A DNA stretch of 64,000 nt from Methanoculleus receptaculi (GTDB lineage Archaea > Halobacteriota > Methanomicrobia > Methanomicrobiales > Methanoculleaceae), in the NCBI RefSeq assembly GCF_033472595.1, contig NZ_CP137642.1:930001-994000 (forward strand), written 5' to 3'. Positions 52,536 through 58,965 of this stretch are shown piece by piece. How positions within the stretch are numbered: the stretch's first letter is position 1; each line of letters starts with the position of its first letter. The notes under the pieces are model-generated. The model had not been told where the DNA came from, did no database searches, and saw only the letters and a list, made by a program, of their open reading frames with translations. The translations under genes and the position numbers were made by a program.

Positions 52536-52766
52536 ATGTCTTCCGCCACACGCGATATCGGCAGCCAGATCAAGCGCATTCCTGTGAAAGAACCCACCTG
52601 GAGAGACCTGCACGATCTCAAAGAGGCAGGGGAGAGTTACGACGATCTTCTGTCCCGGATGATCCGGCGAGAGCGGGACTATCGCGACTGGAAGATGATC
52701 GTCGAGATCGAGGAGAGCGGTGAGTTCGTAGCCTTCGACCCGGACGAGATCCTACAGGATGACTGA
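52536..52766 (+). CDS. antitoxin of a RelBE-type pair
   Basis: The 76-residue protein (SSATRDIGSQIKRIPVKEPT, then WRDLHDLKEAGESYDDLLSR and MIRRERDYRDWKMIVEI) has the pattern of small archaeal VapB/RelB-like antitoxins. A DNA-binding start is followed by a helix (DLHDLKEAGESYDDLLSRMI) and an acidic toxin-binding tail (EESGEFVAFDPDEI). The frame opens upstream, but ATG 52536 is 30 nt downstream of an AT-rich box. Its toxin partner is interrupted by a transposon. Confidence 0.8.
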   Translation: MSSATRDIGSQIKRIPVKEPTWRDLHDLKEAGESYDDLLSRMIRRERDYRDWKMIVEIEESGEFVAFDPDEILQDD

Positions 52767-52977
52767 GGTATCGGAAGCGGGAAAGCGTGTTTGCCATTCT
52801 GATCGAGAGAAGGGCACGGGAGTTCTTGAAGGGGCTCCCCCCCAAAACCCGGCGTATCGTCGTTGAAAAGATCCAGGAACTCGCGGAGAACCCATTTCCG
52901 GGAGACCGAGACAAGGAAAAACTTGAGTATCCCCATCCCCCTGCCATCTACCGCCTCCATATCAGCAGATCCTTCAC

Positions 52978-54208
52978 CGATCAAACAGGCAGGAAGCCCA
53001 CCCCTTTAGGGGTGGGTGGAATACCGTCATAAGCACCTATTTATACCTAAAGAACCAGGGATTCTCTACATCATGCTACTTACAATAAAGGTGAAGTTGC
53101 TGACGTCGCAGGAACAACACGACGATCTCCTGAAAACAATGGAGCGATTCAACGAAGCCTGTAACTACATCTCCGACGTAGCATGGTCGAACCGAACGTT
53201 TGGGAAGATCAGACTCCAGAAGATCCTCTACTACGAGGTTCGGGAGAGATTCGGTCTTTCTGCTCAGATGGTCGTCCGAGCGGTCAGCAAAGTCTCCGAG
53301 AGTTACAAGATCGACCGGTCTGTGAAACATACCTTCAAGTCTCATGGGGCTGTCGCCTACGACCATCGGAACCTGACGATTAAAGGTGCAGATCGGGTAT
53401 CGATCCTAACACTCAATGGTCGGACACTGGTTCCAATGGTGTATGGGGATTACCGACCCCTCGATCAAACCCGGATCAGAGGACAGGCGGATCTCATCTA
53501 CTTTGATGGGGTCTTCTACCTGATGCTGGTCGTCGACATCCCGGAAGAGAAGCAGATTGAGAACCCCGACGGCATCCTCGGCGTGGATCTGGGGGTCACC
53601 AATCTGGCAACCACAAACGATGGAGTCCAGTTCTCCGGCGAGAAGTGCGAGGCTGTGCGGAAACGATACTCGGCACTCAAGGCGCGACTTCAATCCGTTG
53701 GGACCTGGGATGCGAAAAAGCATCTGAAGCGGATCTCAAGAAGAGAGAGGAGATTCAAGAAAGACACGAATCATTGTATCTCAAAGCAGATCGTTGAAAC
53801 GGCACAAGGCACGAACCGGGCGATTGCCCTTGAAGACCTGAAAGGGATTCAACCCGGTAGCACGGTTTCTAAGCCATTACGGTCTGCTCTCGGCAAATGG
53901 GCGTTCTATGAGTTGGCATCGTTCATCCAGTACAAGGCACAACTCCTTGGTGTTCCGGTGGTGTTTGTTGACCCCCGCTATACTTCGCAGCAATGTTCAG
54001 TCTGCGGTTTTGTCAGCAAAGAGAACCGGAAGTCGCAGTCTGAGTTTGTCTGTCTGGAGTGCGGTCATTCGGAGAACGCTGATATCAATGCCGCCAAAAA
54101 TATTGCACTCAGGGCTGCCGTCAACCAGCCTATTGCACTCCACTCCTCGAATCAAGTAGAGGAGAGATGGAAGGGCAAGCCCACCCCTTTAGGGGGTGGG
54201 TAGTTGAC
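52978..54208 (+). mobile_element. IS200/IS605-type element carrying only tnpB
   Basis: The boundaries are set by restoring the relE frame. The left flank is TTCAC (52973-52977), and the element ends TTGAC (54204-54208). Subterminal palindromes CCCACCCC-TTTA-GGGGTGGG (52997-53016) and CCCACCCC-TTTAG-GGGGTGGG (54180-54200) are the expected hairpins. There is no target duplication, as expected for single-strand transposition. No tnpA is present, so mobility would need a transposase in trans. Confidence 0.88.
53073..54203 (+). CDS. tnpB: TnpB, RNA-guided endonuclease of the IS605/IS1341 group
   Basis: The 376-residue protein is intact. The RuvC residues are D172 (GVDLGVTNLATT), E254 (IALEDLKGI) and D337 (ENADINAAKN). 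The zinc finger is C308/C311 and C327/C330. Known TnpB proteins use an omegaRNA made from the element's 3' end and flank to cut the empty donor site. Here the guide would come from 54209 onward, the relE 3' part. TATA-like TATTTATACC (about 53038) lies 30 nt before the ATG, so the message may be leaderless. Confidence 0.93.
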   Translation: MLLTIKVKLLTSQEQHDDLLKTMERFNEACNYISDVAWSNRTFGKIRLQKILYYEVRERFGLSAQMVVRAVSKVSESYKIDRSVKHTFKSHGAVAYDHRNLTIKGADRVSILTLNGRTLVPMVYGDYRPLDQTRIRGQADLIYFDGVFYLMLVVDIPEEKQIENPDGILGVDLGVTNLATTNDGVQFSGEKCEAVRKRYSALKARLQSVGTWDAKKHLKRISRRERRFKKDTNHCISKQIVETAQGTNRAIALEDLKGIQPGSTVSKPLRSALGKWAFYELASFIQYKAQLLGVPVVFVDPRYTSQQCSVCGFVSKENRKSQSEFVCLECGHSENADINAAKNIALRAAVNQPIALHSSNQVEERWKGKPTPLGGG

Positions 54209-54386
54209 TGTCTTTTACATCATAGAGCCTGAGGAGAACGTCGTTGAGATCGAGAAGATCATGACGATCGAGAAAGCCCATAAGGATTATTCGCGCAGGT
54301 AGCCTCCTCCCCAGGCACAGGTGTCTCGTCCTTCCTTTCGCCGGGGGATTCGGGGCTGCAGTCCGTAGTTCACTTGACTCCGATAC

Positions 54387-54674
54387 TCAGAGACCTAATC
54401 CATAAGTCATCATCAAGGTGCTTCCTGGTGTCACTCCGGAGCCCGGCAATCTCTTCTTTCGTCTCTCTCGCGACCTGGGCTCTGGTCCTGCTTGTCCGGC
54501 CACAGGTCTAATTTCGTATCCATGCTTTGGAGTATATCCACAGCGTAATATCTCCTCCTGGAGGTTTTCTCCCCGGATGATCTCAAAGGTGGCGTAGTCT
54601 CCTGTGGCTTCTTCCCACCTGATGTTGAACGATTTGGTAACGTAACGAAAGTTCTGTAAAATTGAATTGGCCAT
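54387..54674 (-). CDS. hypothetical small protein, possibly decayed
   Basis: The first 60 residues ([20 protein letters not shown], then [20 protein letters not shown]) read like a real protein. The last 35 are arginine- and proline-rich and may result from a frameshift. No family is recognised. The remaining bases 54303-54386 show nothing. Confidence 0.35.
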
Positions 54675-54903
54675 GGATCCCTTACCGTTAATCGAAGATT
54701 ATCTTTCCGATCAGGAGAATGGCATGAAGACCCAGGTGATGCTCGCAGAGGCCCTCCAGCAGGCAGGAGCCGCCCAGTACGAACGCACCGATGCGCGGAA
54801 AGCGCATCGGAACGGCTACAAGGACCGATCCCTCAAGACCCGATACGGGGAGACAGTCCTCCGGAAACCCCAGTTCCGCGAATTTCAGAAGGGCATCCAA
54901 TGA
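54673..54903 (+). pseudogene. N-terminal fragment of an IS256 (Mutator) family transposase
   Basis: Residues [20 protein letters not shown] then [20 protein letters not shown] match the N-terminal zinc-finger-like region of IS256 transposases, whose consensus is close to RNGYRPRTLKTRVGELVL. The frame stops after 76 residues, and the DDE domain (about 330 residues) is missing. The break falls exactly at the start codon of the DUF1828/DUF1829 gene (ATGA overlap). Confidence 0.75.
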
Positions 54904-57650: not shown

Positions 57651-58034
57651 ATGGCTGCCCCCGGCACCGCACGTGAGCACAAACTGCGACTTAAAACCGA
57701 GCTGGAGAGGTTCGTCGACCGCTGGAGCCGGGACCCCTCGATCAGGAAGATAATTCTCTTCGGTTCGGCTGCCCGGGGCGATGTCCGTTGCGACAGCGAT
57801 CTCGATCTCGTCGTTGTTCAGGAGACAGATAAGAAGTTTTTATCACGTCTTGAGCCGTTTTATCGCGATGCTCGTATCGCCATGGATATTCTGGTGTATA
57901 CCCCGGATGAGTTCGCTGCCATGCAGGAAGGGATTTTTCTTAAGAATGCGTTACAGGACGGTGTTGTACTCTATGAAGCAGGAGCCCGAAAAAGAAGGAA
58001 CCCGATGGCTGAAACAGGCAGAACGCGACCTTGA
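57651..58034 (+). CDS. MNT-type nucleotidyltransferase (antitoxin of HEPN-MNT pair)
   Basis: The 127-residue protein has the minimal nucleotidyltransferase motif FGSAARGDVRCDSDLDLVVV with the catalytic D-x-D and a third carboxylate in IAMDILVYTP. In HEPN-MNT pairs the MNT protein adds AMP to the HEPN toxin and neutralises it. The HEPN gene starts 61 bp before this stop. ATG 57651 has no obvious ribosome binding site. Confidence 0.88.
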   Translation: MAAPGTAREHKLRLKTELERFVDRWSRDPSIRKIILFGSAARGDVRCDSDLDLVVVQETDKKFLSRLEPFYRDARIAMDILVYTPDEFAAMQEGIFLKNALQDGVVLYEAGARKRRNPMAETGRTRP

Positions 58035-58377
58035 CGATGCAGAGTATGCTTTTGCCGGCGAGAGGTACAACCTGACCTGCTTCCTGGCCCAGCAGGCTGC
58101 AGAGAAGGCCATCAAGGCATACCTCTATCTCTCCGGAGAGGAGAGAGTGCTCGGCCATTCCGTCGCGGACCTCCTTAACAGGGCCTCCTCACTCAACAGC
58201 GCCTTCGGCACCATCTCGCGGGCAAGGACACTCGACCTCTATTATATCCCAACCCGCTATCCGAACGGGATTCCGGGAGGCCTGCCGTACGAGGCGTTCG
58301 ATCGGGAGGAAGGCGAGAAGGCCCTGGCTCTCGCTACCTCCGTCATCGACCTCGTCAAGGAGATGTTCTCGGGCTAG
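57973..58377 (+). CDS. HEPN domain protein (toxin of HEPN-MNT pair)
   Basis: The 134-residue helical protein shows the HEPN start RWLKQAERDLDDAEYAFAGE and FLAQQAAEKAIKAYLYLSGE, then GHSVADLLNR. HEPN toxins are RNases with an R-x4-6-H motif. The C-terminal segment here (RARTLDLYYIPTRYPNG) has no histidine at that distance, so the nuclease site is either atypical or lost. ATG 57973 is inside the MNT gene, the usual overlapping arrangement. Confidence 0.86.
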   Translation: MKQEPEKEGTRWLKQAERDLDDAEYAFAGERYNLTCFLAQQAAEKAIKAYLYLSGEERVLGHSVADLLNRASSLNSAFGTISRARTLDLYYIPTRYPNGIPGGLPYEAFDREEGEKALALATSVIDLVKEMFSG

Positions 58378-58510
58378 TGCCGTGCCGGGCGGTGCTGGGA
58401 TATGGATCGGCAGCCCGGAGTTGCGCCCTTAGTCCCGTGGCCTCGTGCAGGAGACGATCCACGGAACCCCTATATAGTGTCATAGATAACTCTCCAGTGG
58501 AGGGGATCAA

Positions 58511-58744
58511 CTGTCAGATACTCGTCTCCGCTACACGGTCCTTATGGAGCAGAATGAGGAGGGAGGGTATACCGTAACGGTGCCGTCCCTCCCGGGGTGC
58601 ATCAGCGAGGGGTCTACCTGGGAAGAGGCGCTGGCACACATCGAGGAGGCGATCGCGGGGTATATCGAGGTAGCCAGGAAACTCGGCAAACCCATTCCGG
58701 TTGAAGTATCCGTACCCCTGAATACAAGCAACGCGGGGACATGA
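58511..58744 (+). CDS. hicB: HicB antitoxin, apparent CTG start
   Basis: HicB neutralises HicA and often represses the operon. The protein SDTRLRYTVLMEQNEEGGYT followed by VTVPSLPGCISEG is the HicB partial RNase-H-like fold; the tail is short, without a separate DNA-binding domain. The ATG at 58544 would remove the first beta strand. Upstream in frame, CTG 58511 is preceded by GGAGGGG ending 5 nt before it, so translation probably starts there (77 residues). TATA-like CCTATATAGTG lies near 58470. It overlaps hicA by 4 bp. Confidence 0.85.
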   Translation: MSDTRLRYTVLMEQNEEGGYTVTVPSLPGCISEGSTWEEALAHIEEAIAGYIEVARKLGKPIPVEVSVPLNTSNAGT

Positions 58745-58965
58745 AACTCCCGAGAACCACCGGGGAGACGGTGGTCGGTGCTCTCAAGAGAGCCGGTTTT
58801 GAGGTGGTTGGCATCCGGGGCAGCCATCACTATCTCTATCATGCGCAACGTGACGTCATCGTCACCGTTCCCGTGCACTCTAAAAAGATCCTTGCGCCAA
58901 AGACGCTTCAGGCGATTCTTTTCCAGTCCGGGATCACCGTCGACGAGTTCCGGGCGCTCCTGTAG
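58741..58965 (+). CDS. hicA: HicA toxin
   Basis: HicA is a small double-stranded-RNA-binding-like RNase that cuts mRNA. The 74-residue protein has VGALKRAGFEVVGIRGSHHY with the catalytic histidine in GSHH, then VTVPVHSKKILAPKTLQAIL and a final helix, all standard. It overlaps hicB by ATGA. The pair appears intact. Confidence 0.93.
   Translation: MKLPRTTGETVVGALKRAGFEVVGIRGSHHYLYHAQRDVIVTVPVHSKKILAPKTLQAILFQSGITVDEFRALL

What the first reader, a model, noticed from the sequence alone, without database searches (positions are those of the whole stretch)
52787..54302. TnpB element inserted cleanly inside a relE toxin gene
Removing 52978-54208 restores a 94-residue RelE frame. The flank is TTCAC, the element ends in TTGAC, both ends carry an 8-bp stem palindrome, and TnpB has all catalytic residues. 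The putative guide would match the 3' half of the toxin gene, so TnpB would cut any uninterrupted copy of that toxin allele. The antitoxin remains intact.
Basis: partly seen in the sequence, partly recalled or inferred. Interest (0 to 1): 0.66.

Follow-up and report, generated by a model that had tools for sequence, protein, structure and literature searches.

The report
Solo TnpB transposon splits archaeal toxin gene
A small transposon that carries an RNA-guided DNA-cutting enzyme (TnpB) but no transposase of its own has landed in a RelE/ParE-type toxin gene of a methanogenic archaeon; its exact borders, guide signal and RNA scaffold can all be shown, but it behaves as this well-known family is expected to.

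Summary
A 1,231-bp element (52978-54208) splits a RelE/ParE-superfamily toxin gene after TTCAC. Twenty uninterrupted homologues of the cassette (19 in related genomes, one elsewhere in this genome) read straight through at exactly this point, without target duplication. TnpB (376 aa) has the RuvC triad D172/E254/D337, a CCCC zinc ribbon and guided_TnpB membership. Relatives share an NTCAY left flank and a TGAC right end. The last ~90 nt form a covarying omega-RNA scaffold with the ISDra2-type pseudoknot. So this is an IS200/IS605-family solo-tnpB element whose predicted guide is the 3' part of the toxin gene.

The claim that it would cut any uninterrupted copy is too broad. By published seed rules, 1 of 20 known copies matches the seed, 3 differ only at position 1, and 16, including the host's own intact paralogue, have two or more seed mismatches. 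The element carries no TnpA; the genome's three TnpA genes lie elsewhere.

Side lead: 6 of about 50 insertions of this clade and its sister group lie in or beside toxin-antitoxin genes; enrichment unproven. New member of a known kind.

The parts
52536..52766 (+). intact antitoxin ORF, 76 aa (VapB/DUF7557-like, weak)
   Evidence: open frame; PF02697 E=0.0016 and PF24434 E=0.0015, both below curated cut-offs; conserved with the toxin in many genus genomes
52787..52977 (+). 5' part of the interrupted RelE/ParE-type toxin gene (GTG start); reads on into the element and stops at 53032
   Evidence: the intact homologue L078 scores PF05016 above its cut-off
52973..52977 (+). TTCAC, target/TAM-like motif at the left border
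   Evidence: conserved in all 20 uninterrupted copies; NTCAY beside 37 placed left ends of related elements (the placement patterns required TCA)
52978..54208 (+). solo-tnpB IS200/IS605-family element, 1,231 bp
   Evidence: empty-site comparison; hairpin core found only at these two ends in the genome
52994..53016 (+). left-end hairpin CCCACCCC-TTTA-GGGGTGGG preceded by GGAAG
   Evidence: sequence; equivalent hairpin in relatives
53040..53045 (+). TTTATA, archaeal TATA-box-like, about 30 nt before the tnpB ATG
   Evidence: sequence; TTTATACC conserved in the 89%-identical viral copy L117; function inferred
53073..54203 (+). tnpB, 376 aa, RuvC triad D172/E254/D337, zinc ribbon C308/C311/C327/C330
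   Evidence: NF040570 E=2.1e-57; PF07282 E=3.9e-24; aligned to TnpB and Cas12f structures; positions
54120..54208 (+). predicted omega-RNA (reRNA) scaffold: GUCAAC (54120-54125) pairs with GUUGAC (54203-54208) as pseudoknot, plus two stems and the RE hairpin
   Evidence: RNAalifold and pair counts on 26 elements: 95.3% of cells paired, 17 of 24 pairs with double changes, covariation 0.518 against 0.198 in shuffles
54177..54208 (+). right end: GCAAG, hairpin CCCACCCC-TTTAG-GGGGTGGG, TAG stop, terminal TTGAC
   Evidence: sequence; 46 right ends finish in TGAC
54209..54228 (+). predicted guide sequence TGTCTTTTACATCATAGAGC (toxin gene 3' part)
   Evidence: in 35 genus genomes, matches to TCAC+guide (up to 3 mismatches) fall only at homologous toxin sites; reversed-pattern control 0; own copy is preceded by TGAC instead of TCAC
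54209..54302 (+). 3' part of the toxin gene, stop TAG at 54300-54302
   Evidence: sequence; same C-terminus in intact homologues

Best explanation
This is a non-autonomous IS200/IS605-family element (solo tnpB). A Y1 transposase (TnpA) acting in trans inserted it as single-stranded DNA directly 3' of TTCAC, without target duplication, inside a RelE/ParE-type toxin gene, removing the toxin's C-terminal third while the antitoxin stays open (placement shown by comparison; mechanism inferred from the family). The 3' end of the tnpB transcript forms an omega-RNA whose last ~20 nt come from the toxin gene (scaffold supported by covariation; expression and length inferred). TnpB with this RNA should cut DNA reading TTCAC+TGTCTTTTACATCATAGAGC, that is, the empty site left when the element excises or a very close uninterrupted allele, so that repair from an occupied copy restores the element (inferred from ISDra2 and other TnpBs). 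The occupied locus is spared because its guide match follows TTGAC, not TTCAC. The choice of a toxin gene needs no special mechanism: the motif was there and the gene is dispensable.
For: 20 uninterrupted copies fix the borders. TnpB family, catalytic triad and zinc ribbon. Shared NTCAY left flank and TGAC right end across independent insertions. Omega-RNA covariation including the pseudoknot described for ISDra2 (PMC10097598). Guide match confined to homologous toxin sites. An independent border check for the sister group: the G014 element L037 in hicB has its empty site in the window's hicB near 58717. 89%-identical element in a contig with tail/head genes and 99-bp terminal overlap. Retention mechanism: PMC8612924, PMC11870625.
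Against: No TnpA in the element. The genome's three Y1 TnpA genes sit elsewhere; two of their elements read in full have different ends (left TTAAC-like, right TTCAC), so current mobility is unproven. The element is single-copy here. LE has an extra C and the RE hairpin an extra G relative to the closest relative. No identical empty allele was found and the homologous cassettes are not syntenic, so the empty sites are homologues, not the same locus before insertion. No RNA or activity data.
Confidence: 0.88

Rival explanations
1. Decayed, immobile relic: the element inserted long ago and is now neither transposed nor active, with tnpB merely not yet broken.
For: No cognate TnpA found; single copy; small indels at both ends.
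Against: tnpB is fully open with all catalytic residues; promoter-like TATA, hairpins and scaffold pairings are kept; the toxin halves are still recognisable without further damage, suggesting a fairly recent insertion.
Confidence: 0.2
2. Domesticated TnpB: kept by the host as an RNA-guided guard that removes or silences incoming toxin alleles, with the element fixed in place.
For: Guide lies in a toxin family widespread in the genus (20 of 35 genomes have a match to the cassette); no cognate TnpA.
Against: No copy of the element at this site was seen in the 34 congeners searched; triad intact, unlike catalytically dead TldR-type repressors (from general knowledge); most known alleles mismatch the seed, so protection would be narrow; typical ends retained.
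Confidence: 0.05
3. TnpB elements of this clade are drawn to, or selectively kept in, toxin-antitoxin modules, because a TA gene is both dispensable and widely shared and so gives the guide many future targets.
For: 6 of about 50 insertions lie in or beside TA genes: window toxin, L037 hicB, L102 hicB, L143 beside hicA, L027 HEPN/MNT, L028 PIN. Toxin families searched in host genomes.
Against: Post hoc count; background fraction only guessed (P from 0.0001 to 0.04 for assumed backgrounds of 1.6 to 5%); insertions in essential genes are purged, and TA genes cluster in islands. L120 sits in an enolase gene.
Confidence: 0.08

Closest known systems
ISDra2 TnpB / reRNA (Deinococcus radiodurans; PMC8612924, PMC10097598)
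   Same: RuvC DED triad, zinc finger, reRNA from the right end, pseudoknot between the guide-proximal end and an upstream stretch, insertion 3' of a pentamer that serves as TAM, guide taken from the flank
   Different: TAM TTCAC (predicted) instead of TTGAT; no tnpA in the element; pseudoknot partner about 84-89 nt rather than about 102-106 nt upstream of the guide; archaeal promoter
Sulfolobus islandicus solo TnpB elements (SisTnpB1 study, PMC10640517)
   Same: archaeal; solo-tnpB copies with a conserved motif 5' of LE used as TAM; seed at positions 1-10
   Different: TAM TTTAA/TTTAT there; different host lineage
Methanosarcinaceae / Methanomicrobiales tnpB elements found here (L099-L106, L118-L145) and viral copy L114/L117
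   Same: 51-89% identical TnpB, same kind of end signals and scaffold
   Different: other insertion sites; Methanolobus L108 still has a neighbouring divergent Y1 TnpA
Halobacterium IS200/IS605 omega-RNAs (PMC12558985)
   Same: archaeal omega-RNAs associated with IS200/IS605 tnpB
   Different: expression shown there, only predicted here

Membership tests
IS200/IS605 family, solo-tnpB (IS1341-like) element | TnpB with RuvC D/E/D and zinc ribbon | tested here: met
IS200/IS605 family, solo-tnpB (IS1341-like) element | subterminal hairpins rather than terminal inverted repeats | tested here: met
IS200/IS605 family, solo-tnpB (IS1341-like) element | insertion 3' of a short motif without target-site duplication | tested here: met
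   20 uninterrupted copies; L037 against window 58717
IS200/IS605 family, autonomous form | own Y1 TnpA | tested here: not met
   no TnpA ORF in 52978-54208; genome TnpAs are elsewhere
RNA-guided TnpB (OMEGA) nuclease | omega-RNA scaffold at the right end with pseudoknot | tested here: met
   covariation on 26 elements
RNA-guided TnpB (OMEGA) nuclease | RNA expression and TAM-dependent cutting | not testable with these tools
   no RNA or biochemical data
RelE/ParE toxin superfamily (interrupted gene) | profile match of an intact homologue | tested here: met
   L078 PF05016 26.1 bits, cut-off 23
RelE proper (TIGR02385) | NCBIfam cut-off | tested here: not met
   14.6 bits against 27.9

The most novel reading that the evidence does not exclude
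TnpB elements of this archaeal clade preferentially persist in toxin-antitoxin modules, and their guides then act as RNA-guided drives against sister TA alleles arriving on plasmids or viruses, so that TnpB spread is coupled to TA turnover.
Probability: 0.06. Interest if true: 0.6.

Novelty: new member of a known kind. Interest (0 to 1): 0.27.

Why it matters
It gives a cleanly bounded archaeal TnpB with a predicted TAM (TTCAC), guide and scaffold, in a lineage for which I found no characterised TnpB, plus natural target alleles with graded seed mismatches that would allow a direct test of TnpB specificity. Biologically it is what the IS605 model predicts. The only point that could go beyond it is the count of insertions in toxin-antitoxin genes.

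Tried and rejected
Rfam at gathering thresholds found nothing at the element. The sigma-70 promoter/terminator scan was uninformative, as expected for an archaeon. Single-sequence folding gave z = -3.4, but its minimum-energy fold pairs the guide with the scaffold, so I relied on the alignment. Trans-mobilisation by the resident TnpAs was considered, but two of their elements read in full have different ends. An orthologous empty locus was sought: beyond the cassette, only about 65 bp upstream and scattered downstream pieces are similar. The library did not hold the DOI I tried for the main transposon-retention study, and I found no paper on TnpB insertion into TA genes.

Full report
OBSERVATION. 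The window is G000:C1:930001-994000 of a 1.98-Mb archaeal genome in one contig. The name is not given; Rfam finds a euryarchaeal eL15 leader and related elements lie in Methanogenium, Methanosarcina and Methanolobus, so a Methanomicrobiales methanogen, probably Methanoculleus, is my inference. The hairpin core AAGCCCACCCCTTTAGGGG occurs exactly twice in the genome, at the two ends.

BORDERS. The antitoxin plus the 5' part of the toxin gene was searched in the 35 genomes of the genus. Twenty uninterrupted homologues with readable sites were found (19 in other genomes, one elsewhere in this genome at C1:1063461). All read through TTCAC straight into the sequence corresponding to 54209 onwards. 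There is no target duplication. These cassettes are homologues in other surroundings: similarity beyond them is limited mostly to about 65 bp upstream, so they show the target sequence rather than the same chromosomal site before insertion. I compared the halves apart and did not join them.

TOXIN AND ANTITOXIN. The two halves alone match no family above cut-off. An intact 93-aa homologue (L078) matches PF05016 above its cut-off but stays below the NCBIfam RelE cut-off. 'RelE/ParE superfamily' is therefore safe and 'RelE' loose. The interrupted frame runs on into the element and stops at 53032, losing about the C-terminal third of the toxin. The antitoxin (52536-52766) is open, with weak VapB/DUF7557 similarity.

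TnpB. 376 aa from ATG 53073; NF040570 guided_TnpB E=2.1e-57, Cas12f1-like TNB 3.9e-24. It aligns with solved TnpB and Cas12f chains; D172, E254, D337 and four zinc-ribbon cysteines are in place. The closest other copy, 89% identical, is in IMG/VR contig 3300029825_000030, which has a 99-bp terminal overlap and head and minor-tail genes beside the element, suggesting that a virus can carry it.

END SIGNALS. In 37 related insertions whose left end could be placed, the flank is NTCAY, with TTCAC in 20; my placement patterns required TCA, so its invariance is partly by construction. The 46 right ends end in TGAC, 41 of them in TTGAC; the search pattern required TGAC too. The left hairpin is preceded by GGAAG-like and the right by GCAAG-like sequence; GA can pair with TC of TTCAC and CA with TG of TTGAC, which resembles the guide-sequence recognition known for IS608/ISDra2 TnpA (from general knowledge; not tested). 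An independent check comes from the sister group: the element L037 in genome G014 interrupts hicB, and the window's own hicB has the matching empty site...TTGTATTCAG|GGGTACGG, with the right-flank match at 58697-58717 on the minus strand.

OMEGA-RNA. On 26 right ends RNAalifold returned a scaffold in which GUCAAC (54120-54125) closes on the terminal GUUGAC, with two further stems and the end hairpin. 95.3% of cells pair, 17 of 24 pairs have compensatory changes, and the covariation score is 0.518 against 0.198 in shuffles and at most 0.113 when slid. Clear examples are GTCAGC/GCTGAC and GTCAAT/ATTGAC in place of GTCAAC/GTTGAC. ISDra2 has the equivalent pseudoknot (PMC10097598). The terminal hairpin may also be held by transposition; the two inner stems are less easily explained that way.

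GUIDE AND TARGETS. TCAC+20 nt of guide, with up to three mismatches, matches 13 places in 35 genomes: the element's own edge (TGAC instead of TCAC, so protected) and 12 homologous toxin sites; the reversed-pattern control gave none. TAM-proximal positions up to about 10-12 decide cutting (PMC10097598, PMC10640517). Seed mismatches among the 20 uninterrupted copies: none in 1 (G031), one in 3 (G001, G016, G029b, all at position 1), two or more in 16, including the host's own paralogue with three.

MOBILITY. No TnpA in the element. Three Y1 TnpAs exist in the genome; two elements read in full have a TTAAC-like left and a TTCAC right end, so they are not an obvious match. A Methanolobus relative (L108) has a divergent Y1 TnpA next to tnpB. 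Whether this copy can still move is open.

SIDE LEAD. Of about 50 insertions of this clade and its sister group, six are in or beside TA genes. Four toxin families were counted in 14 host genomes to get a feeling for the background. Under assumed backgrounds of 1.6-5% the excess has nominal P of 0.0001-0.04, but the background is a guess, the count was made after the fact, and insertions in essential genes are purged. I do not claim enrichment.

VERDICT. A well-delimited new member of a known kind. Interest is modest.

Noticed in passing
window 57651-58965: A toxin-antitoxin island (MNT nucleotidyltransferase, HEPN, hicB, hicA) lies about 3.5 kb downstream; in genome G014 (L037) a related TnpB element interrupts hicB of what looks like the same island, at a site that is empty here (near 58717).
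   Followed up: partly
L027, L028, L037, L102, L143 and window 52787-54302: Six of about 50 insertions of this TnpB clade and its sister group are in or beside toxin-antitoxin genes; background not properly measured.
   Followed up: partly
L120 (G066:C3:27319-28431): A 62-63% identical TnpB element sits inside an enolase gene (Enolase_N on the left, enolase-like sequence continuing on the right); whether another enolase copy exists was not checked.
   Followed up: no
window 52994-53016 and 54177-54200: The left- and right-end stems are identical in sequence here, while the 89%-identical viral copy has different left (CCCACGAC) and right (CCCACCCC) stems, which suggests homogenisation of the two ends.
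   Followed up: no
window 54667-54903 and L063 1081-1390: A Mutator-type transposase fragment lies beside both toxin-antitoxin cassettes of this genome, in inverted relation.
   Followed up: no
L030, L032, L033, L040: A more distant tnpB element (about 36% identity) has the same right flank (CCCTCTAAAAAGGATCACCG) in four congeneric genomes, so it looks like an old, vertically kept insertion.
   Followed up: no
L064 (G001:C1:1079695): A truncated copy of the same cassette: antitoxin whole, toxin cut after about 45 nt with unrelated sequence following; no TnpB element was noticed there.
   Followed up: partly
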